From positions 1 through 64,000 of the forward strand of contig DYEY01000063.1 in assembly GCA_020725465.1 (NCBI GenBank): a stretch of DNA of 64,000 nt. The letters run 5' to 3'. A model generated the notes under the pieces. That model was not told the DNA's origin, searched no databases, and saw only the letters and a program-made list of their open reading frames with translations. This document shows positions 5,076 through 25,488 of the stretch, one piece after another. The position numbers and the translations under genes are program-made. The DNA comes from Dethiobacter sp. GTDB taxonomy: Bacteria > Bacillota > Dethiobacteria > Dethiobacterales > Dethiobacteraceae. The stretch's first letter is position 1. Each line of letters begins with the position of its first letter.

Positions 5076-5088
5076 GCTGCTCTCTCCT

Positions 5089-5802: not shown

Positions 5803-5822
5803 GGGGCCATCCCTCCGGGTTT

Positions 5823-6365: not shown

Positions 6366-6377
6366 TAACAGGCCTCC

Positions 6378-6449
6378 TTGCTTTTTTGGTATCACGAAAG
6401 TTATAATAATAACACTTATAATATTACCAGTCATGTGCGGAATTGGCAA
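6378..6449. promoter_or_regulatory. Face-to-face promoters of the ECF and chelatase operons
   Basis: Plus strand: TTGCTT (6378-6383), 18-bp spacer, TATAAT (6402-6407), reading toward the chelatase genes. Minus strand: TTGCCA (6449-6444), 17-bp spacer, TAATAT (6426-6421), reading toward the ECF S component. Both would start transcription near 6413, each running through the other promoter. TTATAATA occurs twice, at 6401 and 6416. A regulator bound between the two -10 boxes could control both units. Confidence 0.5.
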
Positions 6450-6570
6450 GCTTTTTAAGGGGCTCTTCGCGGCAACCGGTAAACTGTGGCATTGCCGCCG
6501 GAAAAGAAGGAATAACAGCACGTCGCGGCGAAAAACCCCGGAGTCGTCATAGACAGGAAGGAGCAGAGCC

Positions 6571-8412: not shown

Positions 8413-8453
8413 CTGCGGCCCGCTGACCTGCCGTGCCGGAGAGGAGGATTTTT

Positions 8454-11400: not shown

Positions 11401-12077
11401 ACGCCACCTCCCTCACTTCCCTGATAGAAAGCGGTAACTGGTCCAAAGAAGAAGAGCTGGCAGACAGTTTCCACCGCAGCATGTCTTACGCTTATCTGCC
11501 GGGCAGGGCGGAACAAACCGGGGAAGCCTACCGCGAAGTGCTGCAGACGGTGGAAGCCATCGTGCAGGAACGGGATAACACGGAGTACGAGGTAACGGAC
11601 CTGGACCATTACTATGAGTTCATGGGTGGGCTGGCCGGCAGCCTGCGCCGCGGTACCGGCAGGGAAGCGCAAATTATGGTCATTGACACCACTGAGGAAG
11701 AGGTGGTGGTGGAAGACCTTAAAATCTGCCTGGAGCGGGCCTCCCGTACCCGTCTTTTTAATCCCTCCTGGCTGGAGGGGATGCTGAGGCACGACTTTCA
11801 CGGCGCCAAAAAAATAAAAGACCGGGTGGAGTACCTGTTGGGGTTTGCCGCCACCACCAACCAGGTGGAAAGCTGGGTATTTGACCAAGTGGCTGACCGC
11901 CTGCTTTTTGACGGCGAGACGCGGCGCCGCCTGCAGCAAAATAACCCTTACGCCGCGGTGAAAATCGGTGAGCTGCTCATGGAGACGGAGCGGCGGGGCT
12001 ACTGGCAGGCCGACCGACAAAAACTGGACAACCTGCGCGGCCTGCTGCTGGAGATGGAAGGAGAAGCAGAGCGGTAA
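8454..12077 (+). CDS. Cytosolic CobN/ChlH-type chelatase large subunit
   Basis: A porphyrin-binding subunit homologue of 1207 residues, similar in length to CobN and BchH. The central conserved block reads HFGMHGTLEF, then FPDLLIG and TIAKRRAYA; the C-terminal domain has ELGRPRIDVMVNICGIFRDTF. Relative to the usual block (HGTxEWLPGK, NNPGEG) it has FNRGK and GNTAES, so it is a divergent member. No signal peptide or membrane span is seen, so it is cytosolic. ATG 8454 sits eight bases after GAGGAGG; an upstream GTG at 8433 overlaps the ribosome site and is less likely. Metal and tetrapyrrole are unknown. Anaerobes usually insert cobalt early with CbiK/CbiX and do not need an ATP-dependent cobaltochelatase. 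Confidence 0.85.
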   Translation: MPKKTPTRILALTNMDNTLALKEAVDDLLAEYGTVLELKKIYFQDFEDPQVPLWALAEETAKADIILVDVRGDVRVARELKNLPGMAGKTVVVLIGGDRELFALTSMGRFRGTKLFRPGGGREKEFDVSAYLRTKKFSALTKRLGAFLPVGMLGDMRNWVLAQEYYAEGDTANLKNMLLLLLREYGGHGNLKPPAPPRRQPDFGLYLPGAGIMTDRDAYCREAGHREGLPLVGVLIYGGMHFYDTAPVADVLFEHLRDEANLLCVFSRVEYNLMALEKYLAGVDLLINLQYFRLHGGPYGGDPEPTYRLLEKMDVPVLTGLRAFETETAKWQEDSRGLSPLEIILGITLPELDGAIEPVFVSAMESFADSQIGKVKRQAVLEERIIRLGRRALSWLALRRKPASEKRVAVLTYDYPPGESNLASAGYLDVFASLEVFLRELRQNGYRLELPTVPLSRFFLQEGLVNTPQYGQKGGLRLPLSLYRQWFACLPREVQQRVVSRFGEPPGEIMVENGELVLPAYITGNILLGVQPSRGVHENPEAAYHDRDLPPTHQYLAYYLYLQKEFRADAVIHFGMHGTLEFNRGKEVALSPECFPDLLIGEMPHIYYYWIGNTAESTIAKRRAYALCLSHGSPPVKNSGLYENYLVLEDLLDQWETGQDGAILSQISELAAGLRLEGDPQHLRRELCRLKRRLIPDGLYVMDRVWQENELAAYLYGVLRHDREFPSLLKILAREEGLEWEDIKGTARGDSIETTARELALDLVRGQAPSWLPPGYAAQAAELVARLNRPRERENLLRALEGRYILPARGGDPVRDPEVYPSGRAMYAFDPRLIPTVAAQNRGREAVQKLLSTLRDKNGRYPETVALVLWGFETMKTGGDTIAAILELLGVRLRRKSAWFRELEVIPLTELGRPRIDVMVNICGIFRDTFATHIDLLNRAVELVAGLPEPEAENYIRRHRLQLEPRLGRLAQARIFGPAPEEYATSLTSLIESGNWSKEEELADSFHRSMSYAYLPGRAEQTGEAYREVLQTVEAIVQERDNTEYEVTDLDHYYEFMGGLAGSLRRGTGREAQIMVIDTTEEEVVVEDLKICLERASRTRLFNPSWLEGMLRHDFHGAKKIKDRVEYLLGFAATTNQVESWVFDQVADRLLFDGETRRRLQQNNPYAAVKIGELLMETERRGYWQADRQKLDNLRGLLLEMEGEAER

Positions 12078-12657: not shown

Positions 12658-14370
12658 ATGGACGGCAGCGACACAAAAAATATTTTGCTTGGCGTTAGGG
12701 AGTTAAGCGTGCACTATAAAACAAAGCATAATTTCCTCACCGCCTTAAATAAAATATCGTTCACCGTGAAAAACGGGGAAAATCACGGCATCATAGGGGA
12801 ATCGGGAAGCGGGAAAACAACGCTGGCCCTGTCTCTTTTGGGTTTGATCGGATTGCCGCACAGGGTGGAAGGGAAGATAACTGTCACAGGCAAAGAAATG
12901 CTCTCCCTTCCCGAACGAGACAAAAAAAAGCTGCGCTGGAAAACGATAGCCCTGGTTTTTCAGAATTCCCTGGATGTGCTAAATCCGGTTATGAAGGTTG
13001 GACAGCAGATTGTGGAGCCTTTAAAAGAAGCAGACGGTCTTACGGAAAGGGAGGCAGCTTCCGAAGCGGTAAGGCTGCTGGAGCTGGTGGGTCTGGAAGC
13101 ATTCTGGAAAGACGCATTTCCTTATCAGCTGTCTGGCGGCATGAGGCAACGGGTGCTTTTGTCCATGGCTTTGTCCTGCAGACCCCGGTTGCTTATTTTG
13201 GACGAACCCACCAGTTCGGTGGATGCTGTCACCAGGAAAAACCTGTTTGAATGTATCCGTAAGCTGCAAGAGAAAATGGGGTTCTCCATGTTGGTCATAT
13301 CCCATGACCTCTCAGTCATGTCGGACCTTACCGATAAAATGATGGTGCTTTACGGGGGAGAAATATTGGAAAAAGGGCTGACCCGGGAGGTGGTTGAAGA
13401 GCCGGCCCACAATTACACCAGGGGCCTTGTGAATTCTTCGGTCCAGGCCTTTCCTTACAAAGACCTCTGGGGTATTCCGGGAGAACCCCGCTATGGGACT
13501 AAAGGATGTGCCTTCCACAACAGGTGTACCCAGGCATTAACGGAATGCAGCGAGAAAAAGCCTTGGCTTGAGCTGGTTGCCGCTAACAGGGAGGTGGCCT
13601 GCCAGCGGGGAGGGATCGTCGACCTGCTTAAAGCAGATGGTATTACCAAAAGTTTTAAAGTCCGTCATACCTGTGTACAGGCGGTAAGGGCTGTATCGCT
13701 GCGAGTGCGCCACGGAGAGACAGTGGCTTTGGTGGGCAGGTCAGGCTCAGGCAAATCTACCCTTGCTCATATCCTCGCCGGATTTTTGCCGGCGGATAAA
13801 GGGGAAATCGTTTTTGACAACCAGGTAATCAAAGACAACGGGCCTGCTTGCCGGGAGGGAGGCATCCAGCTGGTTTTACAGGACCCTTTTAGCTCCTTAA
13901 GCCATAGGTTTACCGTTTCTGACGCGCTGCTTGAGCCTCTGCGGGTTAATAAAATCGGCTCACCGGAAGAGAGGACGGAACGGGTAAAAAGCGCATTAAG
14001 GGACGTCCAGCTCCCAGCTGATGATTCTTTCTTAAACAGGTACTGCTCCTCATTAAGCGGAGGACAAAGGCAAAGGGTTGCCATTGCCCGCGGGTTGGTT
14101 ATGAAGCCAAAGTTATTACTGGCCGACGAAATAACTACCATGCTGGATGTCTCGACCCAAGCCAACCTGTTGCGCCTGCTGAAAGGATTGCAGAACAGCA
14201 ACGGTTTTGCCATGGTTTTCATCACACATGATTTGCCGCTGGCCCGAAAAATAGCCGAAAGGATTATTGTTCTTCATCATGGAGCAATTATAGAGCAGGG
14301 ATCATCCAGTTATGTAACGGAAGATTCCTGCTGCTGTCTGACCAAAGAACTGATGGAGGCAGGTCTCTGA
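12658..14370 (+). CDS. Opp/Dpp/Nik-type ABC transporter, fused double ATPase
   Basis: The 570-residue ATP hydrolysing subunit combines the DppD and DppF (or NikD and NikE) halves in one chain. Domain 1: Walker A GESGSGKTT (about 56-64), LSGGMRQR, Walker B LLILDEPTSSVD, then the oligopeptide/nickel C-terminal extension with GCAFHNRC and conserved Cys. Domain 2: GRSGSGKST, LSGGQRQR, LLLADEITTMLD. It opens a five-gene run on the plus strand with two permeases, an FmdE-family gene and a lipoprotein. Substrate is unproved; nickel, a metal chelate or a peptide are all possible, with the island favouring a metal complex. Confidence 0.85.
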   Translation: MDGSDTKNILLGVRELSVHYKTKHNFLTALNKISFTVKNGENHGIIGESGSGKTTLALSLLGLIGLPHRVEGKITVTGKEMLSLPERDKKKLRWKTIALVFQNSLDVLNPVMKVGQQIVEPLKEADGLTEREAASEAVRLLELVGLEAFWKDAFPYQLSGGMRQRVLLSMALSCRPRLLILDEPTSSVDAVTRKNLFECIRKLQEKMGFSMLVISHDLSVMSDLTDKMMVLYGGEILEKGLTREVVEEPAHNYTRGLVNSSVQAFPYKDLWGIPGEPRYGTKGCAFHNRCTQALTECSEKKPWLELVAANREVACQRGGIVDLLKADGITKSFKVRHTCVQAVRAVSLRVRHGETVALVGRSGSGKSTLAHILAGFLPADKGEIVFDNQVIKDNGPACREGGIQLVLQDPFSSLSHRFTVSDALLEPLRVNKIGSPEERTERVKSALRDVQLPADDSFLNRYCSSLSGGQRQRVAIARGLVMKPKLLLADEITTMLDVSTQANLLRLLKGLQNSNGFAMVFITHDLPLARKIAERIIVLHHGAIIEQGSSSYVTEDSCCCLTKELMEAGL

Positions 14371-14371
14371 C

Positions 14372-15442
14372 ATGAGCAAGACAGGGTTACGGCTGTTTGA
14401 ATATCTGCTGGCTTTTCTGGTGATTGTCAGTTTAAACTTCGCCCTGCCCAGGATGATGCCCGGAGACCCTTTCCTGCATTATTCCGCTGAAGTCGACGAA
14501 ACGGTAGCATTTTATTCCAGGGAGCAGATACAGTATTTCCGGGAATATTACGGCCTTAACAGGCCGTTGCACCAGCAGTATGCGGCTTATCTCAAAGAAC
14601 TCGCCAGGGGAGACCTGGGCTTCAGTTATTACTACAAAGAAAACGTGCTCAGCATAATCTTGCGCAGGTTGCCCTGGACCTTGTTTCTGGTGGCAAGTGC
14701 CATGGTCTTTAGCATCGCCCTGGGAATAATCCTCGGTAGTTATTCAGCCTGGCGCAGGGACAAATGGCAGGACAGTGTGCTGTATACAGTTTTTATTGTT
14801 TTTTCCGAGATCCCGGCTTTTCTTGTGGGCTTGGCCCTGCTGATCTGGTTTGGAGCCGGGCTTGGACTGTTTCCCCTGGCGGGTGCGGTTACCCATTTTG
14901 CCCGGTATAACAATATCTGGGAAAGGGTAAAGGACATACTTCACCATGCGGCCCTGCCCGTTCTTACTTTGACTCTTGCCAGGACGGGAGGTATTTATCT
15001 TCTGGTGCGCAACAGCCTGGGAACGGTTCTGACCAAAGATTATATGCGTACAGCCAGAGCCAAAGGGCTAAAGGAGTTGAGGATCCGCTACAGCCATGCC
15101 CTGCGCAATGCCCTGATGCCACTGGTTACCCGCCTGGCCATTCAGCTGGGAGCCCTGCTGGGAGGAGCGATCCTGGCAGAAAACGTTTTTTCTTACCCGG
15201 GGGTCGGTGTTTTAATGCGCTCAGCAGTGGTAGTACGAGATTATCCTTTGATTCAGGGGATTTTTCTTGTCCTGGCGGTGGGGGTAATGGCGGCGAATGT
15301 GCTGGCGGACCTGGCCTACAGGTATCTTGACCCCCGGACGAGGCCGGCGGCTGTCACCGGCCGGGATGCCTGGAAAGTAAAAGTCACCACCTGGACAGGA
15401 GTCGGTTATGAACTTGAACTTAAAGATGATTCTTGCGGGTAG
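14372..15442 (+). CDS. ABC transporter permease, DppB/NikB family
   Basis: A 356-residue inner-membrane permease. It has the DppB layout: an N-terminal span, a periplasmic-type loop with PGDPF and YYGLNRPLHQQYAAYL, then five spans. The coupling motif is DYMRTARAKGLKELRIRYSHALRNALMP, the EAA loop of this family. The gene starts one base after the ATPase stop and overlaps the next permease by 35 bp, so translation is coupled. It pairs with the NikC-like subunit to form the translocation path. Confidence 0.88.
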   Translation: MSKTGLRLFEYLLAFLVIVSLNFALPRMMPGDPFLHYSAEVDETVAFYSREQIQYFREYYGLNRPLHQQYAAYLKELARGDLGFSYYYKENVLSIILRRLPWTLFLVASAMVFSIALGIILGSYSAWRRDKWQDSVLYTVFIVFSEIPAFLVGLALLIWFGAGLGLFPLAGAVTHFARYNNIWERVKDILHHAALPVLTLTLARTGGIYLLVRNSLGTVLTKDYMRTARAKGLKELRIRYSHALRNALMPLVTRLAIQLGALLGGAILAENVFSYPGVGVLMRSAVVVRDYPLIQGIFLVLAVGVMAANVLADLAYRYLDPRTRPAAVTGRDAWKVKVTTWTGVGYELELKDDSCG

Positions 15443-16283
15443 CCAGGCCGTCTGGTATAACCTGAAACCAACGGGAAAGATTTCGGTAATGATCCTGGCA
15501 ATGTTAATTGTTTTGGCGGTATTTGCCCCTCTGTTTACCTGGCTGCCTCATGACCGCTCTTCCGGGCCTCCCCTCTCGCCACCGAGGTTACCGCATCTTT
15601 TAGGGACCGATGACTTGGGAACGGACATCTGGGCCATGATCTGTTTTGGTGCCAGGGTAAGCCTGGCAGTGGGTCTTGGTACCGCTCTGCTGGCCGGTCT
15701 GGGAGGAGGCATTGTCGGGATGCTTGCCGCCTACCGTGGTGGTTGGACAGACAGGCTTTTGATGAGGATTATTGACATCATGATTGCCTTGCCCAGTTTA
15801 CCGGTGATGATAGTCCTGGCAGCTTTCTTTGGTCCCAGCCTGCTGAACATCGTTATGGTCCTTACCCTGTTTTCCTGGTCTGTGCCGGCCAGGGTAGTAA
15901 GGTCGGGGGCACTTTCCCTCAAGGAGCAGCCGTATATAAAAATGGCTGCCCATTACGGAGCCGGGACTTTTTATCTGCTGACACGGCATTTTATTCCCGA
16001 GTTGCTGCCCATAGTTACGGTGAGCATGATCAGGTTGGCCGGCATGGCTATCGTTACCGAAGCGTCCCTGGCCTTTCTGGGCCTGGGTGATCCCACCTCC
16101 AGGAGCTGGGGCTTAATTATCAACCACGCCGTAAATTTCAGGGGCATTTACTTTACGGATTTTTGGAAATGGTGGCTGTTTTATCCCTGGCTGTTTCTTA
16201 CCCTTTTGGTTACTTCCCTCGCCCTTTTGGGAAGAGACCTGGAAAGGATGGCTGACCCCCGGCTGGGAAGATTTACGAAATAA
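15408..16283 (+). CDS. ABC transporter permease, DppC/NikC family
   Basis: A 291-residue permease with six predicted spans. Family marks are LLGTDDLGTDIWAMICFGARVSL after the first span, the EAA loop around YIKMAAHYGAGTFYLLTRHFIPELLP, and EASLAFLGLGDPTSRSWG near the end. The ATG at 15408 has AGGAG seven bases upstream. This places the start inside the previous gene; ATG 15426 is a weaker alternative. It is the last gene before a 320-bp gap and the FmdE-family gene. Confidence 0.88.
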   Translation: MNLNLKMILAGSQAVWYNLKPTGKISVMILAMLIVLAVFAPLFTWLPHDRSSGPPLSPPRLPHLLGTDDLGTDIWAMICFGARVSLAVGLGTALLAGLGGGIVGMLAAYRGGWTDRLLMRIIDIMIALPSLPVMIVLAAFFGPSLLNIVMVLTLFSWSVPARVVRSGALSLKEQPYIKMAAHYGAGTFYLLTRHFIPELLPIVTVSMIRLAGMAIVTEASLAFLGLGDPTSRSWGLIINHAVNFRGIYFTDFWKWWLFYPWLFLTLLVTSLALLGRDLERMADPRLGRFTK

Positions 16284-16603
16284 GCCAGGTAAATCTGTGA
16301 TTGCAATAAATAATCTGCGCCCTTAAGGTAGCAATAATATCAATATCGTGTTACTGTTTTGGAAAATGCTCCGGTAGCCGGATGGCTTGATGGCTGGCGA
16401 CAAAAAATTTGAAAAAACGAGACGGAGGTGAAAGATATTGTTAAACTTCCGGGATGTTTGCGCTGCGTGGGCCGCTGTCCAGCTGCGGGGGAGCGAATGA
16501 CCAGAGGTTGTGAGAACAAAATATTTTCGTTTGCCGTGTTTGCTTTGCTCAGTCTGTTTGCTTAACGTGCCCAAAAAATATCCGATAGGGGGTGTTAATT
16601 ACC
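16284..16603 (+). other. Long gap inside the ABC transporter operon
   Basis: A 320-bp gap separates the NikC-like gene from the FmdE-family gene. It contains the small frame at 16428-16565 and a GC-rich TCCGGTAGCCGGA hairpin near 16369. No clear promoter or known riboswitch was recognised. It may carry an internal control element for the FmdE and lipoprotein genes. Confidence 0.35.
16428..16565 (+). CDS. Possible small Cys-containing membrane peptide
   Basis: A 45-codon frame from GTG 16428 encodes KLPGCLRCVGRCP, another Cys, and then a hydrophobic C-terminus (FSFAVFALLSLFA). It lies in the 320-bp gap between the permease and the FmdE-family gene. The GGAGGTG ribosome site overlaps the GTG, so it fits better a TTG at 16438 in another frame, which gives only 20 codons. 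Real translation is therefore uncertain. The four Cys within 25 residues before a membrane segment make it worth recording in a metal-handling operon. Confidence 0.25.
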   Translation: MKDIVKLPGCLRCVGRCPAAGERMTRGCENKIFSFAVFALLSLFA

Positions 16604-17212
16604 GTGGATAAAACCATGTGGGAAAAAGTAGTGGAATTTCATGGCCATGTCTGCCCTGGGTTGGCCATAGGCTACAAGGTGGCCGGGATTGCGCTGGAAC
16701 ACCTGCAGGAAAGCAGGGCGGAGGACGAGGAAGTAATGGCTGTTGTTGAAAATGACGCCTGCGGTGTAGACGCAATTATGGTTATGACAGGATGCACACT
16801 GGGTAAGGGCAACTTAATATTTAAAGATACCGGTAAACAGGTTTATACCTTTGGCAGCCGCAACTCAGAAAAAGCGGTCAGGATTTCGGTGAACGGGAAT
16901 ATCCTGCAGGGAAGCCGGGAAATAAGGGAGCTGCATAAAAAAATCATGGAGGATGCTGCCTCTGAGGCGGAAAAAGAAGCATACCAAATACTGCGCCAAC
17001 AAATAATTGATGATATTTTGAAGATGCCAGGCGGGCAGTTTGCTTCGGTCAAAGAAGTGGCCTTCGCAGTGCCCGGAAAGGCTCGTTTGTTTCCATCATT
17101 ACAATGCGGCTGCTGCGGCGAATATGCCATGGAGCCGAGAACAAGGAATCAAAACGGGAAAGTTGTCTGTCTGGATTGTTTTGATGATTATACAAGGACT
17201 ATAAAAGTATAG
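16604..17212 (+). CDS. FmdE-family protein (formylmethanofuran dehydrogenase subunit E-like)
   Basis: About 202 residues. The FmdE domain begins WEKVVEFHGHVCPGLAIGYKV, with the conserved His and Cys of the family, and continues with ENDACGVDAIMVMTGCTLGKGNL. The C-terminus is a zinc ribbon: CGCCGEYAME, then VVCLDCFDDY. FmdE proteins outside methanogens are common in anaerobes and are thought to bind metal, but no reaction is established. GGGGGTG lies nine bases before GTG 16604; GTG 16592 and ATG 16615 are alternatives. Placement between permease and binding-protein genes suggests a metal chaperone or sensor for the transported substrate. That is inference. Confidence 0.85.
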   Translation: MDKTMWEKVVEFHGHVCPGLAIGYKVAGIALEHLQESRAEDEEVMAVVENDACGVDAIMVMTGCTLGKGNLIFKDTGKQVYTFGSRNSEKAVRISVNGNILQGSREIRELHKKIMEDAASEAEKEAYQILRQQIIDDILKMPGGQFASVKEVAFAVPGKARLFPSLQCGCCGEYAMEPRTRNQNGKVVCLDCFDDYTRTIKV

Positions 17213-17225
17213 GGAAGGTGCCATA

Positions 17226-18839
17226 ATGTTAATGCCGTATAAAAAGAAAACTGTTGCATTACTATGCCTGCTTGTGGCCCTTATGTTTTTTGCCGCAGGC
17301 TGCGGTACTTCCGGCCAGAAAGGAAAAGCACCGGAAACCGGTGGCCCCGGCGGCGACCAGCAGGCAGTGCCGGCTGAGCCGGTGGTATTGCGGCTGGCAG
17401 GCGGGGACTGGGGTTTTCCCCAGCCTTATACCCGTTATGCCAGAGGGCCCGGCAACGCCAAAGTGAACTATATTTTCGACAAGCTTATCGAAAAAGATGA
17501 AAAAGGCTTTATCCCCTGGCTGGCTAAAAAATGGGACATACTGGATAACGGAACGAAATACGTATTTTACCTTGAGCAGAATGTTAAATGGCATGACGGG
17601 ACACCGTTCACCGCTGATGACGTGGTTTTCACCTTCGACTACATTAAAAAATACCCACCGGTAAGCCCGGTAGGTATTTTCACGGACGACAGATTCTTGC
17701 ATGAAGTCAAAGCCCTGTCAGGTCACCAGGTGCAACTTTCTCTGGCCGAGGCAGATCCCAACTTCTTTGAAGCTCTTTCCTCGGTATATATCCTGCCACG
17801 GCACATCTGGTCTGCCATAGACCGGCCGGATGAATTCACCGCACCTGAAGCGGTAACAGGCACCGGACCATTTGTCCTCACTGAATACAGCAAGGAGCAT
17901 GGAACCTACCGTTATGAGGCGTTCCCTGATTTCTGGGGGCCGAAACCGGCCGTGGATGTGTTAGAATTTATTCCGGTAAGCGACAGCGTCCTGGCACTGG
18001 AAAAAGGAGATATTCATATCGCTGATATACCAGTTGATGCGCTTTCGCGTTTTGAAAATGACCCGAAGTTTACCGTGATGCAAAAACCAGGGTTCTGGGG
18101 TTACCGGCTCAGGTTTAATATGGAAAAAGTGAAAGAATTTAAGAACCGGGAGCTGCGGCAGGCCTTTGCCTATGCCATCGACCGCCAGGATTTGGTCAAT
18201 AAAACAGCCAGGGGCGCCGCGGTGGCCGGCAGCCTGGGGGTCCTTCCGCCTGACCACCGCTGGTTTAACCCTGATTTGCCAAAGTACGAAAGAGATGCGG
18301 AAAAAGCCAAAAAGCTGCTTAAACAGGCAGGGCTGGCTGACAAAAAGCTGCAATACGAACTGCTTGTCGGTGAAGGGAGAGAGGTAAGGATAGGGGAGCT
18401 TATCAGGGAGCAACTTGCAGACATCGGAATCGAGATCAAAGTTGTGTCCACAGACATGAAAACCCGGGATGCCCGCATTGCTCAGGGCAATTACCAGCTG
18501 GTCCTGGTAGGCCATGGTGGTTGGGCCAGGGATCCCAATTATCTGGGAACCAGGTTTACCGGAGGTGACCGGGGGAGCTGGGCAGACGGAACGCCAGGGT
18601 ATTATAACCCGGAAGTGGAAAGGCTGGCGGAAATGCTACGCCGGGAATTAAACGAAAATGCCAGGAAGGAATTATCCATGCAGCTGCAGCAGGTCCTGGC
18701 CGAAGATGTGCCTGAGATTTCCCTGTATTTAACCACTGGGCAGGTTGTGTTCAGGAATGATATCCATAATGGCTGGATGCACGTTTTCGACCATCATGAA
18801 ACCTCACATAACATATTGTCTTTCCTGAAAAGAAGTTGA
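17226..18839 (+). CDS. ABC transporter substrate-binding lipoprotein, family 5 (Opp/Nik type)
   Basis: A 537-residue extracellular binding protein. The N-terminus is a lipoprotein signal (KKKTVALLCLLVALMFFAAGC, lipid-modified Cys near residue 27), then a Gly/Pro linker. Family 5 marks include NVKWHDGTPFTADDVVFTFDY, then AVTGTGPFVLTEY and RELRQAFAYAIDRQDLV. It should deliver its ligand to the two permeases upstream. Nickel-, peptide- and heme-binding members share this fold, so the ligand is open. It is the last gene of the unit and faces a shared terminator. Confidence 0.88.
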   Translation: MLMPYKKKTVALLCLLVALMFFAAGCGTSGQKGKAPETGGPGGDQQAVPAEPVVLRLAGGDWGFPQPYTRYARGPGNAKVNYIFDKLIEKDEKGFIPWLAKKWDILDNGTKYVFYLEQNVKWHDGTPFTADDVVFTFDYIKKYPPVSPVGIFTDDRFLHEVKALSGHQVQLSLAEADPNFFEALSSVYILPRHIWSAIDRPDEFTAPEAVTGTGPFVLTEYSKEHGTYRYEAFPDFWGPKPAVDVLEFIPVSDSVLALEKGDIHIADIPVDALSRFENDPKFTVMQKPGFWGYRLRFNMEKVKEFKNRELRQAFAYAIDRQDLVNKTARGAAVAGSLGVLPPDHRWFNPDLPKYERDAEKAKKLLKQAGLADKKLQYELLVGEGREVRIGELIREQLADIGIEIKVVSTDMKTRDARIAQGNYQLVLVGHGGWARDPNYLGTRFTGGDRGSWADGTPGYYNPEVERLAEMLRRELNENARKELSMQLQQVLAEDVPEISLYLTTGQVVFRNDIHNGWMHVFDHHETSHNILSFLKRS

Positions 18840-18970: not shown

Positions 18971-19651
18971 TTATTTTCGGCAGCCCATGCGGTAACCGGC
19001 TGCCAGCAGTACGCCGGCTGCCGTCCATGTGCCCAAAATAACCGGCGCATGTGTAAGCCGGATACCGGAAAAGCTCATCCGGGCTGCCTGTACCAGGTTG
19101 GGGACCAGAAAAATCATTACCAGGGTAGTCATCCCTGTCAAAAGCAGCAGGGAATTCATGGTTTTCAGGGAACCGCTCCGATTCTGCCCTGACAGCCTGC
19201 GGATACTGAAGGCCACCACCAGCAAAAGCAAAGTGAAAACGGCGCAAAAGGCCAGGTCTGGCAGCAGGTGGTGATGTCCGGCCCTTTGTTTGAGCAGGAT
19301 AAGGCCGAATGCCGTGGCCAGAAGGCAGAAGGGGCAGGGCAAAAATGCCCCCAGGTACAGGACTCCCGGCTTCTGGCAGGAGTCTCCCTCTCCGCAGTTT
19401 CCGCCAAGACCAAGGTAAACAAACAAAGCAGCTATGGCCAGGCTGACCGGGAAAGTATATTCTTCCACCAACCAGGCGATTTGGGCGGCATACGGCCCCA
19501 GTATCCTTGATAGCAATAGCAGAAATGCTCCGAAGAAAAGGGAAACGCCGAATATCTGCCTGTTTCCCAGCCAAGACGTACCCAGGATGGCTCCGGTTTT
19601 GAGACTGAGGATAAAGATGGCTGTAAGGTTACCTGCTGCCAGCGCGTCCAA
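18971..19651 (-). CDS. Membrane transporter-like protein, probable DUF2162 family
   Basis: A 226-residue integral membrane protein with about six spans. A loop has paired Cys (NCGEGDSC), and the following span carries LPCPFCLLATAFGL, a CPxC-type motif inside or next to the membrane. This fits the predicted-transporter family DUF2162, which I recall being linked with CobN-like and ExbB-like genes in methanogens; that link needs checking. It is the last gene of the riboswitch operon, starting at TTG 19651 after GGGGGGAGA, 30 bp after the CobN-like gene. A role in moving a metal or small ligand across the membrane is inferred. Confidence 0.7.
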   Translation of the reverse strand: MDALAAGNLTAIFILSLKTGAILGTSWLGNRQIFGVSLFFGAFLLLLSRILGPYAAQIAWLVEEYTFPVSLAIAALFVYLGLGGNCGEGDSCQKPGVLYLGAFLPCPFCLLATAFGLILLKQRAGHHHLLPDLAFCAVFTLLLLVVAFSIRRLSGQNRSGSLKTMNSLLLLTGMTTLVMIFLVPNLVQAARMSFSGIRLTHAPVILGTWTAAGVLLAAGYRMGCRK

Positions 19652-19681
19652 TGTTCTCCCCCCGTTTTATGGTTCAATTGC

Positions 19682-22600
19682 TCAGCTGCCGGCTGCCTTT
19701 TTTTTACGGGAATACCCGTAAACCGCCAGCCCTACCAGAAGCAAGCCTACCAGCAGCGCGGGAACCGCCACAGCGGAGGCCACGGGAGCCAATGCCGGCT
19801 GCTCCGGGATCACTTCATAGGCCCTCACCTGTTTTTCCGGTGACGCTGTTTTTTCCCGCTCCCGTTCTTTTGGCTGAGGAAGATCAGGCTGCTGCTCAGG
19901 TGCGGGAGGGGCCGGCAAGGCGCCGGCAGTGCGCCGGTGGGGCTGGGTCAGCCTCTCCTGTGGCTCAGGGCCTACAGGTTTGGCTATAACTATTAATTCA
20001 GGGGTTATTTCCGGTTCTGACCGGTCTTCCTCCGCTGCGGGAAGCTCCAACGGCAACTCAACCTTTATTTCTTCAACGCGTGGCTCCTGAACTTCTGTTA
20101 CAGGGTCCGGGCTAAAGGGCGGCATTACCGGACGTTCAAAAGACAGGTCCCGGTAAGTGGCTTCCTTAAATATCTCCCGGAACCGGTCCAGCAAGCGGTC
20201 ATCCAGGAGGGAAAAGTTGGCTGCCCACTGGTTTAGGGTCAGATTCCGGCAGGTATGGTGGCAGCAGACTACCCCATACTTCACAGCAGTTTCCAGATAA
20301 ATATCAGCAAGCCTGGCTTTTTCTTCCGCGGTGGCCGCCCAAAGGTCTTTGCGGGCTGACTCCAGCAGGGTGGCTGCAATAGACTGCAGGGCGTAAGGAT
20401 CAAGGCGTTTACGCACCTCTTCATCAAAAACATAGGTTTCGGCCAGCCGGCTCCAGGAGCGGTCGCTGATGGCGCCGGTGGTGATGTCCATGTAAAATGC
20501 GTTGGTGATCCACTTGGCCACTGTCCGTGCCCCTGAATAGCCCTCCTCCAGCATTTCCCGGACAAAAACCGGGTTTAAAAGCCGGCTCCACAGTTCCAGG
20601 GACACAAATTCCTGCAGCGGCTGTACCAGAAGGTGGTTGGGACCAAGGCGGGAATTGGCGATGTAGGCTGGTATTTCGACCCCTGAAAGCCACTGGACTG
20701 CCAGTTTCAGCCCGCCCAGGTACTGGGCCACGTCGTCGTTGTCCAGAGTCCCATAGATGGAGTCGCGCACCTGTACCACTGCTTCTACCCGGCTGAGCAC
20801 CCGGGCCAGCAGGTCCTGGCCCCTGATACCGTAAACCGGGGATCCGTCTGCCCGGTCGTTACCGAAAATGAAGCCCATCCGGCTGATGTAAAGTTCGGCC
20901 AGGCTGCCGGCGCCGTCCCACTGGTCAGAAAAATCCATCAGCTCCGAAAGGCCCAGGCCGTAGGCACCGGGCTCAGCGCTAAAGACCCGGGATGCAGCCA
21001 GGAAGTCGGCTTCTTCTGCCGACAACCCTGCCGACAATAGATCCGTGAAAATTTCCTCATAATGTTTTTTGATATAATTATCTTCAAAGCTTTCACCGGT
21101 TTTGGCCAACTGGCGTGCTACCCGGTCCAGCAGGGAGTTCACCAGGGAAAAAGCATCCCGGAAAAGGGAGGACCCGGTTAAAGCCACGTCAATGCGCGGT
21201 CGCCCCAGCTCGCTGACCGGCACCACCCGGAAGGAAGTGACGCGGCCGGCGCTGTCCCAGCGCGGTTCAACTCCCATCAGCCGCATGGCCAGGGCGATGC
21301 TTTCGCCACCTGTGCGCATGGTTTCGATAGCCCAGAGCACCACTCCCACCGACTGCGGGTAGCTGCCGTGGGCAGCATAGTGCGACGCCAGAAGCTTATC
21401 CGCCAGCTCGCTGCCGATCCGCCAGGCTGCCCGATCCGGGACGGTGCGCGGGTCAAAAGTTTTAATGTTCCTGCCTGTGGGCATAACATCGGGATTACGT
21501 ACCGGGTCCTTGCCCAGCCCCGGCGGGACAAAGCCGCCCTCCAGGGCCAAAAGCAGCATGTCCATTTCCTCAGTGGTCCGGGCCAGATCGGCAGCGATCT
21601 GTTCCCGCTGGGCTTCCCTGTTTTCCGGATCATAATTGATAATGGCGTTTACCATTAAGTCAAAACGCTCCCCCTGGGGGGCAACCCCGAAAGTATGGAG
21701 ACCGAGGGGAGTTACAGTGGCCTCCATCAGGTGCAGGAAATCATGTACCGCCTCCACCAGCTCCTCAAAAGTCAGCCGGTCAGGGTCAAGCCCCATCTCC
21801 GCCGCCATGTTCTCCTCAGCCAGGAGAAAGTTGATCCGGGTCTTAATGCGCTCCAGGGCCTGGTTGTCCCGTACCAAGTCTGACATATACTTTTCATATT
21901 CATGGATAAGGTTGTGCAGCTCAAGCAGGTTGCCGTAAAGCTCAGTGTTGGCCACCGCCGCCGTCAGGTGGCTGAGCAGCACTGCGTAGCCCCTCCGCTT
22001 GGCTTGGGTGCCCTCGCCGGGGTTATTGACAATGTAGGGGTAAATATTGGGCAGGTGGCCGTGGACCACATCGGGCCAGCATTCCGCCGCAAGGCCCACC
22101 GCCTTGCCAGGCAGCCATTCCGCCGTACCGTGGGTGCCAAGGTGGATTACCGCGTCAGCTTTAAAGCAGTGCTGCAGCCAGTAGTAAAAAGCCAGGTACT
22201 GGTGGGAAGGAGGCAAATGGGGGGAATGGATGATTTTTTGGATGTCTTCTCCCCACCCCCGCATGGGCTGTGGCCCGAAAAAAACGTTGCCACTGATGTG
22301 ACCGGGCAGGACGAAGCGCCCCTGGTGCACCATTACGTTGCCGGGAGCAGGCCCCCACTCCGCTTCCACTTTTTCCTGTAAAGCGCCGGGCAGCCCCCGG
22401 AACCACTCCAGGTAACCGTCCACTTCCAGGGTAATTATGCCGTCCGCCGCTGCCAGGCGCTCCAGCTCGCCCGGCGCCCAGCCCCCCACATTCCGTCCTT
22501 TGCGGAAAATAATTTCCAGTACTGCTTCTTCGCAAACCGACTCCTCCGGGCCGTTGAGCTCCCCGTCTTCATTCACCCTGTAGCCCTGCTGCTGTAACGC

Positions 22601-24133
22601 CTGCAGGATTTTGGCCACGCTGCGGGTGGAATTCAGGTAAGAGGCCCCGATGTCGTCCCGCCCGCCTCCGTAATTGTAGTAAAGCAGGGCAACTTTTTTG
22701 TCCTGGTTGGCTGACTTTTTCAGCCGCGCCCAGGCCGCTGTCCGCCCGGCCAGCCGTTCGATGCGGTCGGGCAGGGTAATCTTTTTGGTCACCACGGCGC
22801 CGGTGGCTTCATCCACAGCTAGGGTTACGTTTCCTCCCATCAGCACCGGCTCGATGCGGCCTTCCAGTTCCGGCATGGCCACCTGCCAGTGCAGTACGTC
22901 CATGGCGCCAGCCGGGTTGGCGAACCACTTTTCCAGGTCGCCGGTATAAATGGGGTTTAGCACCGGGACGTTCATGTCTTTAAAAAGCTGCAGGGTGCCC
23001 AACTCGTTGCGGGAATCAAACTGGAAACCTATGCAGAGGATAAAGGCATGGATTGCCGGTTCCGGATGGCCGTCGCCGTTCAGGTCCCGGAAGAAAAACT
23101 TCCTGGCTGCCAGGATGCGGTCCTGGTTCCGGGGGTAAACCGGTATCACATTCAGCCCCAGCCTCTCCAGCGCCAGCACCGTATCGTTGTACAAGTCCAT
23201 GTCGGCATTTTTAAAAAACGAATCGTACCCTATAAGGCCAATCCAAGGTGCCTCGGGGTCAAAACCAAGACGGCTTTCATACCAGGCAAAATAATCGGGC
23301 GGTTCATAAAAAATACCGGTGTGGCTGGCTGCCGGGTCTCCTTCGTAATATTTTGAGCTAGAGTCGGCAGCCGGGTGGTAAGCAAAATTGCCAAGGAGCA
23401 CCACCGGGTCCAGAGATTCCGTAGTCTCCAATCCGGCAAACCGGGAGGCCAGGTAAAGCAGCAGCCGTTCCATGTTGGCGACGCCGCCGTTGATAAGGTA
23501 CTGGTTCAACCTTGTCCAGTCAGTGTCGTCTTTGTTGACAACCACCTCAAGGTCCCTCACCATTTCCACCAGCAGCCCCGCTTGCGCCCAGCTGCCGTCG
23601 GCGGCCTTTTCCGCTGAGCGCTGCAACAGGATTTCCGGCTGAGCCTGCGGTTCCAGCTTGGAAAAGATTCCCCTCAGTGCGTCGGCCCGGTTGGCACCGA
23701 TCATTTCCAAAAGGACAGCGTCGGAGCGGAGGACAGACTCCTCCACCAGTGCCAGCCGGTCAGTTATATCCAAGTCGCCCGGAGCAAAAATTTTCAGGGT
23801 AAAACCATACTCTCTCCGCATCAGGTTATGGTAGGCTTCCACCAGGGAAGCCACCATTGCCGTGGTGCCTGTAATAATGGTCAGATGGGGGCTTGTCCCT
23901 GTTTGGTAAATTCCGGCCTCTTCTTCCCCGTCAGGCTGTTCCTCACCGGACCCGGTCTCAAGTCCCGGTCCTTTTCCTGTTTCTTCTTCTTCTTCTTCAA
24001 CAGCCAGCTGTCCTTCGCCGGCCAGAGCATGGCCTTCTTCCGCCGGCCCGGTAGCCAAAGCCGGCCCCAGGGCAACGCACAGGTTACCCAGCAAGAGCAA
24101 CAGTACCAATAATAACGATAAACGCCTTTTCAC
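19682..24133 (-). CDS. Extracytoplasmic, membrane-anchored CobN-type chelatase subunit
   Basis: A 1483-residue CobN/ChlH homologue. Residues 1-28 are a signal peptide (KRRLSLLLVLLLLLGNLCVALGP cut short by Ala residues), then an acidic linker. The chelatase body spans about 75-1290, with the full family block HLGTHGTAEWLPGK, CWPDVVHG, NNPGEGTQAKRR and, later, ELGRPRIDVALTG. A Pro/Glu/Lys-rich stretch of about 130 residues follows, then one span (VPALLVGLLLVGLAVYGY) and a KKK tail. The body should therefore lie outside the membrane. GTG 24133 overlaps the DUF2149-like stop (GTGA). No ATPase partner is encoded in this operon; ExbB and DUF2149 neighbours suggest proton-motive force instead. Confidence 0.85.
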   Translation of the reverse strand: MKRRLSLLLVLLLLLGNLCVALGPALATGPAEEGHALAGEGQLAVEEEEEETGKGPGLETGSGEEQPDGEEEAGIYQTGTSPHLTIITGTTAMVASLVEAYHNLMRREYGFTLKIFAPGDLDITDRLALVEESVLRSDAVLLEMIGANRADALRGIFSKLEPQAQPEILLQRSAEKAADGSWAQAGLLVEMVRDLEVVVNKDDTDWTRLNQYLINGGVANMERLLLYLASRFAGLETTESLDPVVLLGNFAYHPAADSSSKYYEGDPAASHTGIFYEPPDYFAWYESRLGFDPEAPWIGLIGYDSFFKNADMDLYNDTVLALERLGLNVIPVYPRNQDRILAARKFFFRDLNGDGHPEPAIHAFILCIGFQFDSRNELGTLQLFKDMNVPVLNPIYTGDLEKWFANPAGAMDVLHWQVAMPELEGRIEPVLMGGNVTLAVDEATGAVVTKKITLPDRIERLAGRTAAWARLKKSANQDKKVALLYYNYGGGRDDIGASYLNSTRSVAKILQALQQQGYRVNEDGELNGPEESVCEEAVLEIIFRKGRNVGGWAPGELERLAAADGIITLEVDGYLEWFRGLPGALQEKVEAEWGPAPGNVMVHQGRFVLPGHISGNVFFGPQPMRGWGEDIQKIIHSPHLPPSHQYLAFYYWLQHCFKADAVIHLGTHGTAEWLPGKAVGLAAECWPDVVHGHLPNIYPYIVNNPGEGTQAKRRGYAVLLSHLTAAVANTELYGNLLELHNLIHEYEKYMSDLVRDNQALERIKTRINFLLAEENMAAEMGLDPDRLTFEELVEAVHDFLHLMEATVTPLGLHTFGVAPQGERFDLMVNAIINYDPENREAQREQIAADLARTTEEMDMLLLALEGGFVPPGLGKDPVRNPDVMPTGRNIKTFDPRTVPDRAAWRIGSELADKLLASHYAAHGSYPQSVGVVLWAIETMRTGGESIALAMRLMGVEPRWDSAGRVTSFRVVPVSELGRPRIDVALTGSSLFRDAFSLVNSLLDRVARQLAKTGESFEDNYIKKHYEEIFTDLLSAGLSAEEADFLAASRVFSAEPGAYGLGLSELMDFSDQWDGAGSLAELYISRMGFIFGNDRADGSPVYGIRGQDLLARVLSRVEAVVQVRDSIYGTLDNDDVAQYLGGLKLAVQWLSGVEIPAYIANSRLGPNHLLVQPLQEFVSLELWSRLLNPVFVREMLEEGYSGARTVAKWITNAFYMDITTGAISDRSWSRLAETYVFDEEVRKRLDPYALQSIAATLLESARKDLWAATAEEKARLADIYLETAVKYGVVCCHHTCRNLTLNQWAANFSLLDDRLLDRFREIFKEATYRDLSFERPVMPPFSPDPVTEVQEPRVEEIKVELPLELPAAEEDRSEPEITPELIVIAKPVGPEPQERLTQPHRRTAGALPAPPAPEQQPDLPQPKEREREKTASPEKQVRAYEVIPEQPALAPVASAVAVPALLVGLLLVGLAVYGYSRKKKAAGS

Positions 24134-24444
24134 CTGACTTCCTCCCCTTTGTCAGTAATAGGCTCTGCGGCGTTTGCCGCCGGGAGTTCCTCAATCAAAA
24201 TAAGCCTGCCGGTCTCCGGGTCCTGATAAACTTTTCCCCGCTCCTGGTATCCCTGCCCGCCTCCTTCTTCAATCAGCGGCAGCTCTTTTAATTCCTTTCC
24301 CCGCTCTACCGGTATAAAAACCAGGTGCTGAAGGTTCCAGGATAAAACCAGGGCAATAATAAGCCCTACACTGAATACCAGCATAACGTCCAGAAGGTTG
24401 ACCAGCCCGGCCATAAAATCCTGTTCCTGTTCAGACAGAAACAC
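24130..24444 (-). CDS. Small single-span protein, probable DUF2149 family (ExbD-like role)
   Basis: About 104 residues with one membrane span near the N-terminus (NLLDVMLVFSVGLIIALVLSW) followed by a hydrophilic, Glu/Gly-rich tail, the overall layout of ExbD/TolR. An Asp stands at the start of the span (LLDVML), as in ExbD. It lies between the ExbB-like and CobN-like genes, overlapping the first by 14 bp and the second by 3 bp. GTG 24444 is chosen because AGGAGCAGGGG precedes it; GTG 24468 would be the longer form. I infer that it completes the proton channel with the ExbB-like protein. Confidence 0.7.
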   Translation of the reverse strand: MFLSEQEQDFMAGLVNLLDVMLVFSVGLIIALVLSWNLQHLVFIPVERGKELKELPLIEEGGGQGYQERGKVYQDPETGRLILIEELPAANAAEPITDKGEEVR

Positions 24445-25117
24445 CTTTTTTCCCCTGCTCCTCAACACGCTGACCGTTCCTCCCCTCCAGCAGTTCCAGG
24501 AAACTTTCCATGTAGTTCAGGTCCCTTTGGTACCAGCCCCGCCGTATGCGGGACAGCACAAAACAGACAGCGCCAACGGCAATACCCATAACAGTGGTAT
24601 CAAAAGCAATAATTACCGCCTCAGAAAGCCCTTTCAGGTCACCCTGACCCAGGGCAGCCAGTCCGGGACCCAGTGGGATCAGGGTACCCATCAGGCCAAG
24701 TACAGGCCCCAGCCTGCTCACCAGCTCCGTCCGGTATAAGGTCCTTTCGTAACGGTATTCTTCCCGGTCCAGCAGCGCCCTGGCCAGAGCCTTACGCTGC
24801 CTTTTTCCAAGGTCCTTCCTGGCAGCAAACTCCATAAGGGCTTTTTTCTGGGCGGCACTTAAAACGCTGTTTTCCAGTTCCTGCAGCAGGCTGTGTTCCT
24901 GCCACACCTCGCTTCTGGTTGCCAGCGGTCTAAATAACCCATGCAGCCCGGAATCTGCCCGGCGCCGGCATTGGCGCTCCGCCAGGAAATTACCTGTCTC
25001 CAACACCGTAAAAAGAGCCATCAGCAAAAGCCCCAAGAGGACAGGGAGCAAAAGGCTCTGTGCCAGCGCGTGCAGTAAAATAATCAGATACCCGGAACCA
25101 GTGATGCCCATCATCAT
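24431..25117 (-). CDS. MotA/TolQ/ExbB-type proton channel protein
   Basis: A 228-residue membrane protein. One span lies near the N-terminus (GYLIILLHALAQSLLLPVL), then a cytoplasmic helical region. The family core is in the C-terminal half: GPVLGLMGTLIPLGPGLAAL and SEAVIIAFDTTVMGIAVGAVCFVLSRIRRG, the two channel-lining spans of MotA/ExbB. It is the first gene of the cobalamin-riboswitch operon. ExbB proteins turn proton flow into mechanical work on a partner, usually TonB. Here no TonB is encoded; the CobN-like protein itself has the Pro-rich linker and membrane anchor that a partner would need. ATG 25117 has GGGG six bases upstream. Confidence 0.85.
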   Translation of the reverse strand: MMMGITGSGYLIILLHALAQSLLLPVLLGLLLMALFTVLETGNFLAERQCRRRADSGLHGLFRPLATRSEVWQEHSLLQELENSVLSAAQKKALMEFAARKDLGKRQRKALARALLDREEYRYERTLYRTELVSRLGPVLGLMGTLIPLGPGLAALGQGDLKGLSEAVIIAFDTTVMGIAVGAVCFVLSRIRRGWYQRDLNYMESFLELLEGRNGQRVEEQGKKGVSV

Positions 25118-25190
25118 TACCCCTTTCAGCTAAAACCCAAAGAAAAACCTTTTTACGGAGCTCTCCCTGCCCTGTGCGGGGAACAATAAA

Positions 25191-25212
25191 AGCTCCCTCT
25201 GGCAAGGGAGCT
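25191..25212 (-). terminator. Riboswitch expression-platform terminator
   Basis: Eight-bp stem, AGCTCCCT (25191-25198) with AGGGAGCT (25205-25212). On the minus strand it is followed by TTTATTGTT. It lies between the aptamer and the ExbB-like gene, so it is the likely ligand-controlled terminator. Confidence 0.75.
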
Positions 25213-25283
25213 GAAGTTTGCAACATTTATTGCGGCATAAACAAAAGCACCTCCCTATCGGCCGTAGGTAAGTGACATTGATA

Positions 25284-25440
25284 TACTGCAGGCAGTTCTC
25301 CTGGCTCTGGTTCATTGCCAACCCAAGCCTTCCCAGGGTATAACCCCAGTGGCACGTTTTGGGCAGCTCACCATCACAGTGGCGGGACCGCACCGGACTT
25401 ACACCGGTTTCTCTATTAACCCACAAAGGGACCTGCAATA
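25284..25440 (-). promoter_or_regulatory. Cobalamin riboswitch (adenosylcobalamin aptamer)
   Basis: Minus strand. Closing stem TATTGCAGG (25440-25432) pairs with CCTGCAGTA (25292-25284). The core GGTGTAAGTCCGGTGCG, followed by CCCGCCACTGTGA, is at 25405-25374, and a second GCCACTG lies at about 25353. The B12 box GCCAGGAGAACTGCC is near the 3' end. These are the hallmark elements of the cobalamin aptamer in the expected order. It should turn the ExbB/DUF2149/CobN/DUF2162 operon off when cobalamin is plentiful. Confidence 0.93.
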
Positions 25441-25459
25441 GGCAATATTTTTTGATGTT

Positions 25460-25488
25460 ATACTAGCATAGTTTTCTGGGAAAGTCAA
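25460..25488 (-). promoter_or_regulatory. Promoter of the riboswitch-controlled operon
   Basis: Minus strand TTGACT (25488-25483), 17-bp spacer, TAGTAT (25465-25460). The predicted start near 25453 falls about 13 bases before the aptamer. Confidence 0.6.

What the first reader, a model, noticed from the sequence alone, without database searches (positions are those of the whole stretch)
18971..25488. Cobalamin-riboswitch operon pairing an extracytoplasmic CobN with an ExbB-type proton channel
Seen directly: promoter, complete cobalamin aptamer with terminator, then ExbB/MotA-like, DUF2149-like, CobN-type and DUF2162-like genes, overlapping or within 30 bp. The CobN-type protein has a signal peptide and C-terminal anchor. 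Known: CobN is normally a cytosolic, ATP-driven cobaltochelatase subunit; ExbB proteins transmit proton force to a partner; cobalamin riboswitches repress B12 uptake or synthesis genes. Inferred: a proton-driven envelope system that binds, loads or strips metal from a corrinoid or related tetrapyrrole and passes the product inward through the DUF2162-like protein. Similar clusters in methanogens are recalled from memory only.
Basis: partly seen in the sequence, partly recalled or inferred. Interest (0 to 1): 0.92.

Follow-up and report, generated by a model that had tools for sequence, protein, structure and literature searches.

The report
Proton-driven cell-surface vitamin B12-pigment handling operon
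This bacterium switches on, when vitamin B12 runs low, a four-gene machine that places a cobalt-chelatase-like enzyme on the outside of the cell and probably powers it with the proton gradient; it is a monoderm, B12-controlled cousin of the gut-bacterial machine that strips iron from heme, and its chemistry has never been tested.

Summary
A strong cobalamin aptamer (RF00174, 124 bits) with promoter and terminator precedes ExbB-like, DUF2149, exported CobN-like (1483 aa) and DUF2162 genes, tightly packed. The set is not unique: it recurs under cobalamin riboswitches in 16 of 16 genomes of many Bacillota families plus one actinobacterial bin, and on the Trichlorobacter lovleyi plasmid pSZ77. Methanobacteriota carry the DUF2162-ExbB-DUF2149 triad, often beside a CobN-like gene. 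CobN-like + ExbB + DUF2149 is already known as HmuS-U-V of the Bacteroidota heme operon; B12-switched relatives have been remarked on, unstudied. This operon is therefore a variant of a known kind. Three findings are added here. (1) Hosts lack TonB receptors, and pSZ77 carries a separate ExbB-ExbD-TonB, so the ExbB-DUF2149 motor probably drives the chelatase-like protein, not an outer-membrane receptor. (2) The active-site motif is CobN-type, not HmuS-type, which favours a corrin. (3) A C-terminal Cys motif (CCHHTC, CCDHTC or CCDCSC) occurs in CobN-like proteins encoded beside DUF2162, which has an invariant PCPxC; this suggests a thiol or metal relay. Whether it strips, loads, reduces or only captures corrinoids is unknown.

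The parts
25460..25488 (-). Promoter-like site (TTGACT-17-TAGTAT, extended -10)
   Evidence: position directly upstream of the aptamer; not statistically above chance on its own
25274..25451 (-). Cobalamin riboswitch aptamer (RF00174)
   Evidence: 124.4 bits, complete model 1-189
25191..25212 (-). Intrinsic terminator (expression platform)
   Evidence: AGCTCCCTTGCCAGAGGGAGCT TTTATTGTTC
24431..25117 (-). ExbB/TolQ/MotA-type proton-channel subunit, 228 aa
   Evidence: PF01618 6.1e-10; alignment A4
24130..24468 (-). DUF2149 protein, 112 aa: one TM helix with invariant Asp27 (ExbD-like), conserved C-terminal TGKLI segment
   Evidence: PF09919 6.7e-13; A3; AF2 helix 18-50 (low confidence)
19682..24133 (-). 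Exported, C-terminally anchored CobN-like protein (CobNx), 1483 aa; His668, Asp1133/Asp1134/Gln1137; CCHHTC motif 1290-1295
18971..19651 (-). DUF2162 membrane protein, 226 aa, about 6 TM helices, invariant PCPxC (105-109)
   Evidence: PF09930 3.2e-26; A2

Best explanation
A B12-repressed, extracytoplasmic corrinoid/cobalt acquisition machine that works like the Hmu heme-dechelatase module. Shown: the riboswitch and gene set are real and conserved; CobNx has an export signal and a membrane anchor; the hosts have no TonB receptors. Inferred: CobNx binds extracellular corrinoids (or cobalt tetrapyrroles) in a CobN-type pocket. ExbB-DUF2149 is a proton motor that drives CobNx's conformational cycle, replacing the AAA+ ATPase that cytosolic CobN/ChlH use and that cannot act outside. 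DUF2162 and the CobNx Cys motif form a relay across the membrane that carries either electrons outward (to reduce Co(III)) or released metal inward. The corrinoid is probably reduced or demetallated and the product taken up, partly by the co-regulated BtuFCD and CbiMQO. Layered estimates: B12-controlled corrinoid/cobalt acquisition about 0.8; the motor acts on CobNx about 0.65; actual metal removal or exchange rather than capture or reduction only about 0.4.
For: Riboswitch upstream of the operon in 16/16 genomes and pSZ77. The genome's other three cobalamin riboswitches precede btuFCD-like genes, cbiM/Q/O with corrin-synthesis genes, and cobT. L035: riboswitch, ribonucleotide reductase, FecCD-type ABC importer with binding protein, then the four genes in one run. 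L031: a cbiM/Q/O-like cluster next door. 12 of 13 hosts keep CbiC and 9 of 11 sampled genomes CbiD. No TonB-dependent receptor in 12 of 13 distinct hosts versus 11-56 in proteobacterial hosts in the same search. pSZ77 carries ExbB-DUF2149 and a separate exbB-exbD-tonB side by side. Active-site motif matches true CobN. Cys motif tracks DUF2162. HmuS, with the same ExbB/DUF2149 partners, removes iron from heme (PMC12583661).
Against: No biochemistry on any DUF2162-linked member. Removing cobalt from an intact corrin is chemically very hard, and no paper on a corrinoid dechelatase was found (library incomplete). Most hosts make B12 themselves and have cobalt or corrinoid importers, so the need is not obvious. 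Archaeal DUF2162-ExbB-DUF2149 triads often lie beside giant adhesin-like ORFs instead of CobN, and Bacillota ExbB-DUF2149 pairs also serve SLH/Big_2 surface-protein operons, so the motor's partner need not be a chelatase. DUF2149 has no detectable sequence match to ExbD beyond the TM Asp pattern.
Confidence: 0.5

Rival explanations
1. Capture-and-reduction only: CobNx is a corrinoid receptor without chelatase turnover; the motor opens and closes it and DUF2162 supplies electrons through the Cys motif so that cob(III)alamins are reduced or freed of their upper ligand before BtuFCD import.
For: Co-regulation with btuFCD; one-operon arrangement with an ABC importer in L035, whose genome shows neither CbiC nor CbiD but has CobS (only 81% complete); invariant PCPxC in DUF2162 with CcdA among weak fold matches (TM 0.42, Z 6.6).
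Against: The chelatase catalytic His668 and Glu707 and the Asp pair are invariant; the fold matches are within noise.
Confidence: 0.25
2. A heme or porphyrin dechelatase for iron, that is, a true HmuS-type system, with the riboswitch incidental.
For: Shared fold and ExbB/DUF2149 partners.
Against: Riboswitch in all 17 loci; HmuS hallmarks His254, His1209/Glu1212 and Met-rich insertion absent; no HmuY, HmuR or HmuT in the operon; HmuT is unrelated to DUF2162; the B. finegoldii hmu operon has no cobalamin riboswitch.
Confidence: 0.07
3. Metal insertion outside the cell: CobNx loads Co(II) into metal-free or wrongly metallated corrinoids, as cytosolic CobN does.
For: CobN-type motif; AAA+ subunits are absent from the operon and a proton motor could substitute.
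Against: Extracellular cobalt-free corrinoids are not known to be abundant; the closest characterised exported relative, HmuS, works in the removal direction.
Confidence: 0.1
4. ExbB-DUF2149 energises an outer-membrane TonB receptor, as assumed for HmuU/V in Bacteroidota.
For: Literature model for HmuU/V.
Against: No TonB receptors in 12/13 hosts; pSZ77 has a dedicated ExbB-ExbD-TonB beside the pair; present in methanogens.
Confidence: 0.03

Closest known systems
Hmu operon of Bacteroidota (hmuYRSTUV), HmuS heme dechelatase (PMC12583661; B. finegoldii copy L197)
   Same: Exported, membrane-anchored CobN-fold protein encoded with an ExbB-type protein and DUF2149; a further multi-TM protein in the operon; superfamily His538/Glu577 conserved
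   Different: Here a cobalamin riboswitch, no HmuY/HmuR, DUF2162 instead of HmuT (unrelated), CobN-type Asp/Gln in place of HmuS His1209/Glu1212, no Met-rich insertion, an extra CCHHTC motif, host without TonB receptors
BtuS family (Rodionov 2003, as cited in PMC6460266) and B12-riboswitched hmu-like operons of Bacteroidota (PMC10100974)
   Same: Third CobN type; cobalamin riboswitch before an hmu-like cluster noted
   Different: Those are diderm clusters with TonB receptors; no Bacillota or DUF2162 version described in the passages read; the 2003 paper itself could not be read
Trichlorobacter lovleyi pSZ77 cobN cluster (PMC3403914; L198)
   Same: Same four genes under cobalamin riboswitches, CCDHTC motif, PCPxC
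   Different: Diderm: adds TonB receptors and a separate exbB-exbD-tonB; the paper discusses cobN with exbBD/tonB, and the passages read do not discuss DUF2162-ExbB-DUF2149
Cytosolic cobaltochelatase CobN (CobNST)
   Same: Fold and active-site motif DxDDxxQ[YF]xGG
   Different: Exported and anchored; no CobS/CobT in the operon; proton-motor genes instead; separate clade

Membership tests
HmuS heme dechelatase family | PF02514 fold, signal peptide and membrane anchor | tested here: met
HmuS heme dechelatase family | Operon partners ExbB-type (HmuU) and DUF2149 (HmuV) | tested here: met
HmuS heme dechelatase family | Catalytic His538 in HFG(T/A)HG | tested here: met
   HLGTHG, His668; conserved superfamily-wide, so not diagnostic
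HmuS heme dechelatase family | LSLDHxxEFMGG (His1209, Glu1212) | tested here: not met
   TLDNDDVAQYLGG: Asp1134, Gln1137
HmuS heme dechelatase family | Heme site 1: Met79 and His254 | tested here: not met
   no His at the His254 column; Met79 column is Ile with Met one position before, in a loosely aligned region
HmuS heme dechelatase family | Methionine-rich insertion | tested here: not met
   gap at that place
HmuS heme dechelatase family | HmuY, HmuR and HmuT in the operon | tested here: not met
HmuS heme dechelatase family | Removes iron from heme | not testable with these tools
   needs an enzyme assay
CobN cobaltochelatase (CobNST) | Active-site motif DxDDxxQ[YF]xGG and GxHG His | tested here: met
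   (Mtb CobN DSDDYFQYHGG; window DNDDVAQYLGG)
CobN cobaltochelatase (CobNST) | Cytosolic, partnered by AAA+/VWA subunits CobS/CobT or ChlI/ChlD | tested here: not met
   signal peptide and anchor; none in the operon; the window's ChlI/D-like gene sits with the other CobN
CobN cobaltochelatase (CobNST) | Groups with true CobN in a tree | tested here: not met
   DUF2162-CobNx clade support 97, with archaeal sisters 99; cytosolic CobN rows group apart (98); quick method, unrooted
ExbB-ExbD/TolQR/MotAB proton motors | MotA_ExbB domain | tested here: met
   PF01618, 39.4 bits versus cut-off 22.9
ExbB-ExbD/TolQR/MotAB proton motors | Partner with one TM helix carrying an essential Asp (ExbD/TolR/MotB) | tested here: inconclusive
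   DUF2149 Asp27 invariant in 16/16 but no ExbD sequence match
ExbB-ExbD/TolQR/MotAB proton motors | Proton flux coupled to work | not testable with these tools
   needs an experiment
Cobalamin riboswitch (RF00174) | Score above gathering threshold, full model, plausible expression platform | tested here: met
   124.4 versus 31.5 bits; terminator
TonB-dependent uptake system | TonB-dependent receptor in the genome | tested here: not met
   controls positive
CcdA-type thiol electron transporter (for DUF2162) | CcdA fold with redox Cys pair | tested here: inconclusive
   PCPxC invariant; CcdA TM 0.42, Z 6.6, not above background; no Pfam DsbD match

The most novel reading that the evidence does not exclude
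A proton-motive-force-driven (de)chelatase for corrinoids on the outside of monoderm cells: an ExbB-DUF2149 motor replaces the AAA+ motor of CobN/ChlH, and a DUF2162 PCPxC to CobNx CCHHTC relay moves metal or electrons across the membrane, giving a B12-switched cobalt/corrin salvage route shared by Bacillota, methanogens and some diderms.
Probability: 0.3. Interest if true: 0.88.

Novelty: new variant of a known kind. Interest (0 to 1): 0.62.

Why it matters
If right, it changes two assumptions. First, the ExbB-type pair in hmu-like operons (HmuU/V) would drive the chelatase itself rather than TonB, which can be tested in Bacteroides too. Second, it offers a function for a large set of exported 'CobN' proteins of archaea and thermophilic bacteria that the HmuS paper lists as unassigned (PMC12583661), and the riboswitch names a likely substrate class. 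The Cys-motif/PCPxC pairing gives point mutations to test for the unknown electron or metal route.

Tried and rejected
A single-protein scan of genome contigs with CobNx found nothing; the alignment-based scan gave 80 loci. A viral-contig scan with DUF2149 found no relatives. DUF2162 structure and fold search: mean pLDDT 70.6, best Foldseek E 0.3; CcdA had the highest TM-score of the rows read but within background, so not used as proof. DUF2149 model too uncertain to search. Considered: HmuT = DUF2162 (rejected, hhalign 2.6%); motor for TonB (rejected for this clade); heme substrate (disfavoured). Considered an exact CCHHTC rule: archaeal members carry CCDCSC instead, so the rule was widened. 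Rodionov 2003 could not be read. Two Rfam calls failed on size; the Bacillota and archaeal loci were rerun, of the proteobacterial ones only four.
Full report
OBSERVATION. On the - strand, a promoter-like site (25488-25460) abuts a complete cobalamin aptamer (25451-25274; 124.4 bits), followed by an intrinsic terminator (25212-25191). Then come ExbB-like (25117-24431), DUF2149 (24468-24130), CobN-like (24133-19682) and DUF2162 (19651-18971), identified by Pfam at 6e-10, 7e-13, 1010 bits and 3e-26. The CobN-like protein, here called CobNx, starts MKRRLSLLLVLLLLLGNLCVALGPALA and ends with a hydrophobic segment plus RKKKAAGS. Hydropathy maxima at both ends match a signal peptide and a C-terminal anchor; the window's second CobN, at 8433-12077, has neither.

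CONSERVATION. In 398 genomes of the phylum, 9 have DUF2162 above cut-off, the window's own among them. In all of these the gene lies in one run with CobNx, and wherever the contig is complete all four genes are adjacent. An alignment-based scan of named genomes added Peptococcaceae UBA2264, Desulfotomaculum, two Desulforudis, Anaerophilus nitritogenes, Anaerovorax and an actinobacterial bin, and put names to genomes already found (for example Carboxydocella and HGW-Firmicutes-8). A cobalamin riboswitch precedes the set in 16 of 16 distinct genomes, usually 50-510 nt before the first gene, tandem in several. In L035 it lies 6 kb upstream at the head of one gene run: ribonucleotide reductase, binding protein, ABC ATPase, FecCD permease, then the four genes. 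The window genome has four cobalamin riboswitches; the other three precede btuFCD-like genes, cbiM/Q/O with corrin-synthesis genes, and cobT. 12 of 13 hosts keep CbiC and 12 of 13 CobS. The operon therefore belongs to a B12-supply regulon, mostly in organisms that also make B12.

ARCHAEA AND DIDERMS. DUF2162 exceeds cut-off in 127 of 150 Methanobacteriota genomes. In 18 loci examined the triad is nearly always contiguous (two lack a called member, which may be ORF-calling), beside or near a CobN-like gene in about eight and otherwise often beside giant adhesin-like ORFs. Proteobacterial CobN-ExbB-DUF2149 clusters lack DUF2162. Trichlorobacter lovleyi plasmid pSZ77 has two cobalamin riboswitches, then TonB receptor, DUF2162, ExbB, DUF2149, CobN, and a second, canonical exbB-exbD-tonB plus receptor. 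Its 2012 description already tied this cobN to cobalamin metabolism with unknown role (PMC3403914).

THE KNOWN RELATIVE. In Bacteroidota hmuYRSTUV, HmuS is CobN-like, HmuU ExbB-like and HmuV DUF2149 (PMC10434189; direct annotation in B. finegoldii). HmuS is a membrane-bound, NADH-dependent heme dechelatase with a solved structure (PMC12583661). The same paper says the archaeal and thermophile 'CobN' groups have no assigned function. A 2023 paper notes that some hmu-like Bacteroidota operons carry a cobalamin riboswitch and perhaps act on cobalamin (PMC10100974). Rodionov 2003, known to me only through PMC6460266, named a third CobN type BtuS. Pairing CobN with ExbB under a B12 switch is therefore not new in itself.

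WHAT DIFFERS. HmuS hallmarks His1209/Glu1212, His254 and the Met-rich insertion are absent; the window has Asp1134/Gln1137 as in true CobN, while superfamily residues His538/Glu577 are kept as His668/Glu707. HmuT is not DUF2162. In a quick unrooted tree the DUF2162-linked proteins form one clade (97) with archaeal sisters (99); cytosolic CobN rows, including the window's second CobN, form another (98), so exported forms lie on one side of a branch. The branch for HmuS is long and its exact place unsure.

A MOTOR WITHOUT TonB. 12 of 13 distinct DUF2162 hosts have no TonB-dependent receptor, against 11-56 matches in proteobacterial hosts in the same search; the one exception is a single hit in a Desulforudis MAG. 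Together with pSZ77, where the ExbB-DUF2149 pair sits beside a full ExbB-ExbD-TonB, this argues that ExbB-DUF2149 drives the extracytoplasmic partner directly. DUF2149 has one predicted TM helix with an invariant Asp27 in an ExbD-like pattern (the ExbD pattern is from general knowledge), although no profile links it to ExbD. Because ATP is not available outside the cell, replacing the AAA+ motor of CobN/ChlH by a proton motor is a natural inference, not a demonstration.

CYSTEINE RELAY. DUF2162 has PCPxC in every aligned bacterial and archaeal sequence. CobN-like proteins encoded next to it carry a Cys motif at one place after the chelatase body: CCHHTC in Bacillota and the actinobacterial bin, CCDHTC in T. 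lovleyi, CCDCSC in five archaeal loci, 20 of 21 in all; the exception, L174, is a broken gene with CSGSVC. None of 68 proteobacterial-type rows, HmuS, or L140 has it. L138 keeps the motif in a broken CobNx in a genome not listed as having DUF2162. Inheritance within clades inflates these counts, but the association spans Bacteria and Archaea. It suggests thiol electron transfer or metal hand-over between the two proteins.

MECHANISM. Most likely: B12 shortage lifts termination; CobNx captures corrinoid or cobalt tetrapyrrole outside; the ExbB-DUF2149 proton motor cycles it; DUF2162 and the Cys motif pass electrons out or metal in; the products feed corrin synthesis or BtuFCD. Substrate class and regulation are well supported by inference; direct drive moderately; actual demetallation weakly, because cobalt is very hard to remove from corrins.

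VERDICT. Real, conserved, and a distinct variant of a known kind; function untested.

Noticed in passing
window 6571-12077 (+): A second, cytosolic CobN (8433-12077) beside a ChlI/ChlD-type AAA+/VWA protein and, divergently, a CbiQ/ABC (ECF-type) transporter (3576-6572). It carries the HmuS-like motif TDLDHYYEFMGG (His/Glu of HmuS 1209/1212), unlike the exported CobNx.
   Followed up: partly
window 12658-18839 (+): Dpp-like ABC transporter genes with an FmdE/zinc-finger protein; FmdE and/or Dpp-like transporters recur near the CobNx operon in L028, L032, L033 and L034.
   Followed up: no
L141-L154: ExbB-DUF2149 pairs without CobN in many Bacillota lie in operons with secreted SLH, Big_2, Fn3_assoc and molybdopterin-oxidoreductase-like surface proteins; in L144 and L152 an ABC_cobalt-type ECF transporter follows; L153 has a Moco riboswitch. 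A second kind of ExbB motor use in monoderms.
   Followed up: partly
L173-L190: Methanobacteriota DUF2162-ExbB-DUF2149 triads without CobN often lie beside giant adhesin-like ORFs of 1000-1900 aa.
   Followed up: no
L140:5720-11410; L049:12343-17277: Divergent exported CobN-like proteins: L140 with ExbB-DUF2149 but without DUF2162, Cys motif or cobalamin riboswitch; L049 (Carboxydocella) a second CobN-like gene directly after the operon, also without the Cys motif.
   Followed up: partly
L138:707-5428; L139:6874-7284: Decayed CobNx genes (frameshifted or reduced to a fragment) behind DUF2149.
   Followed up: no
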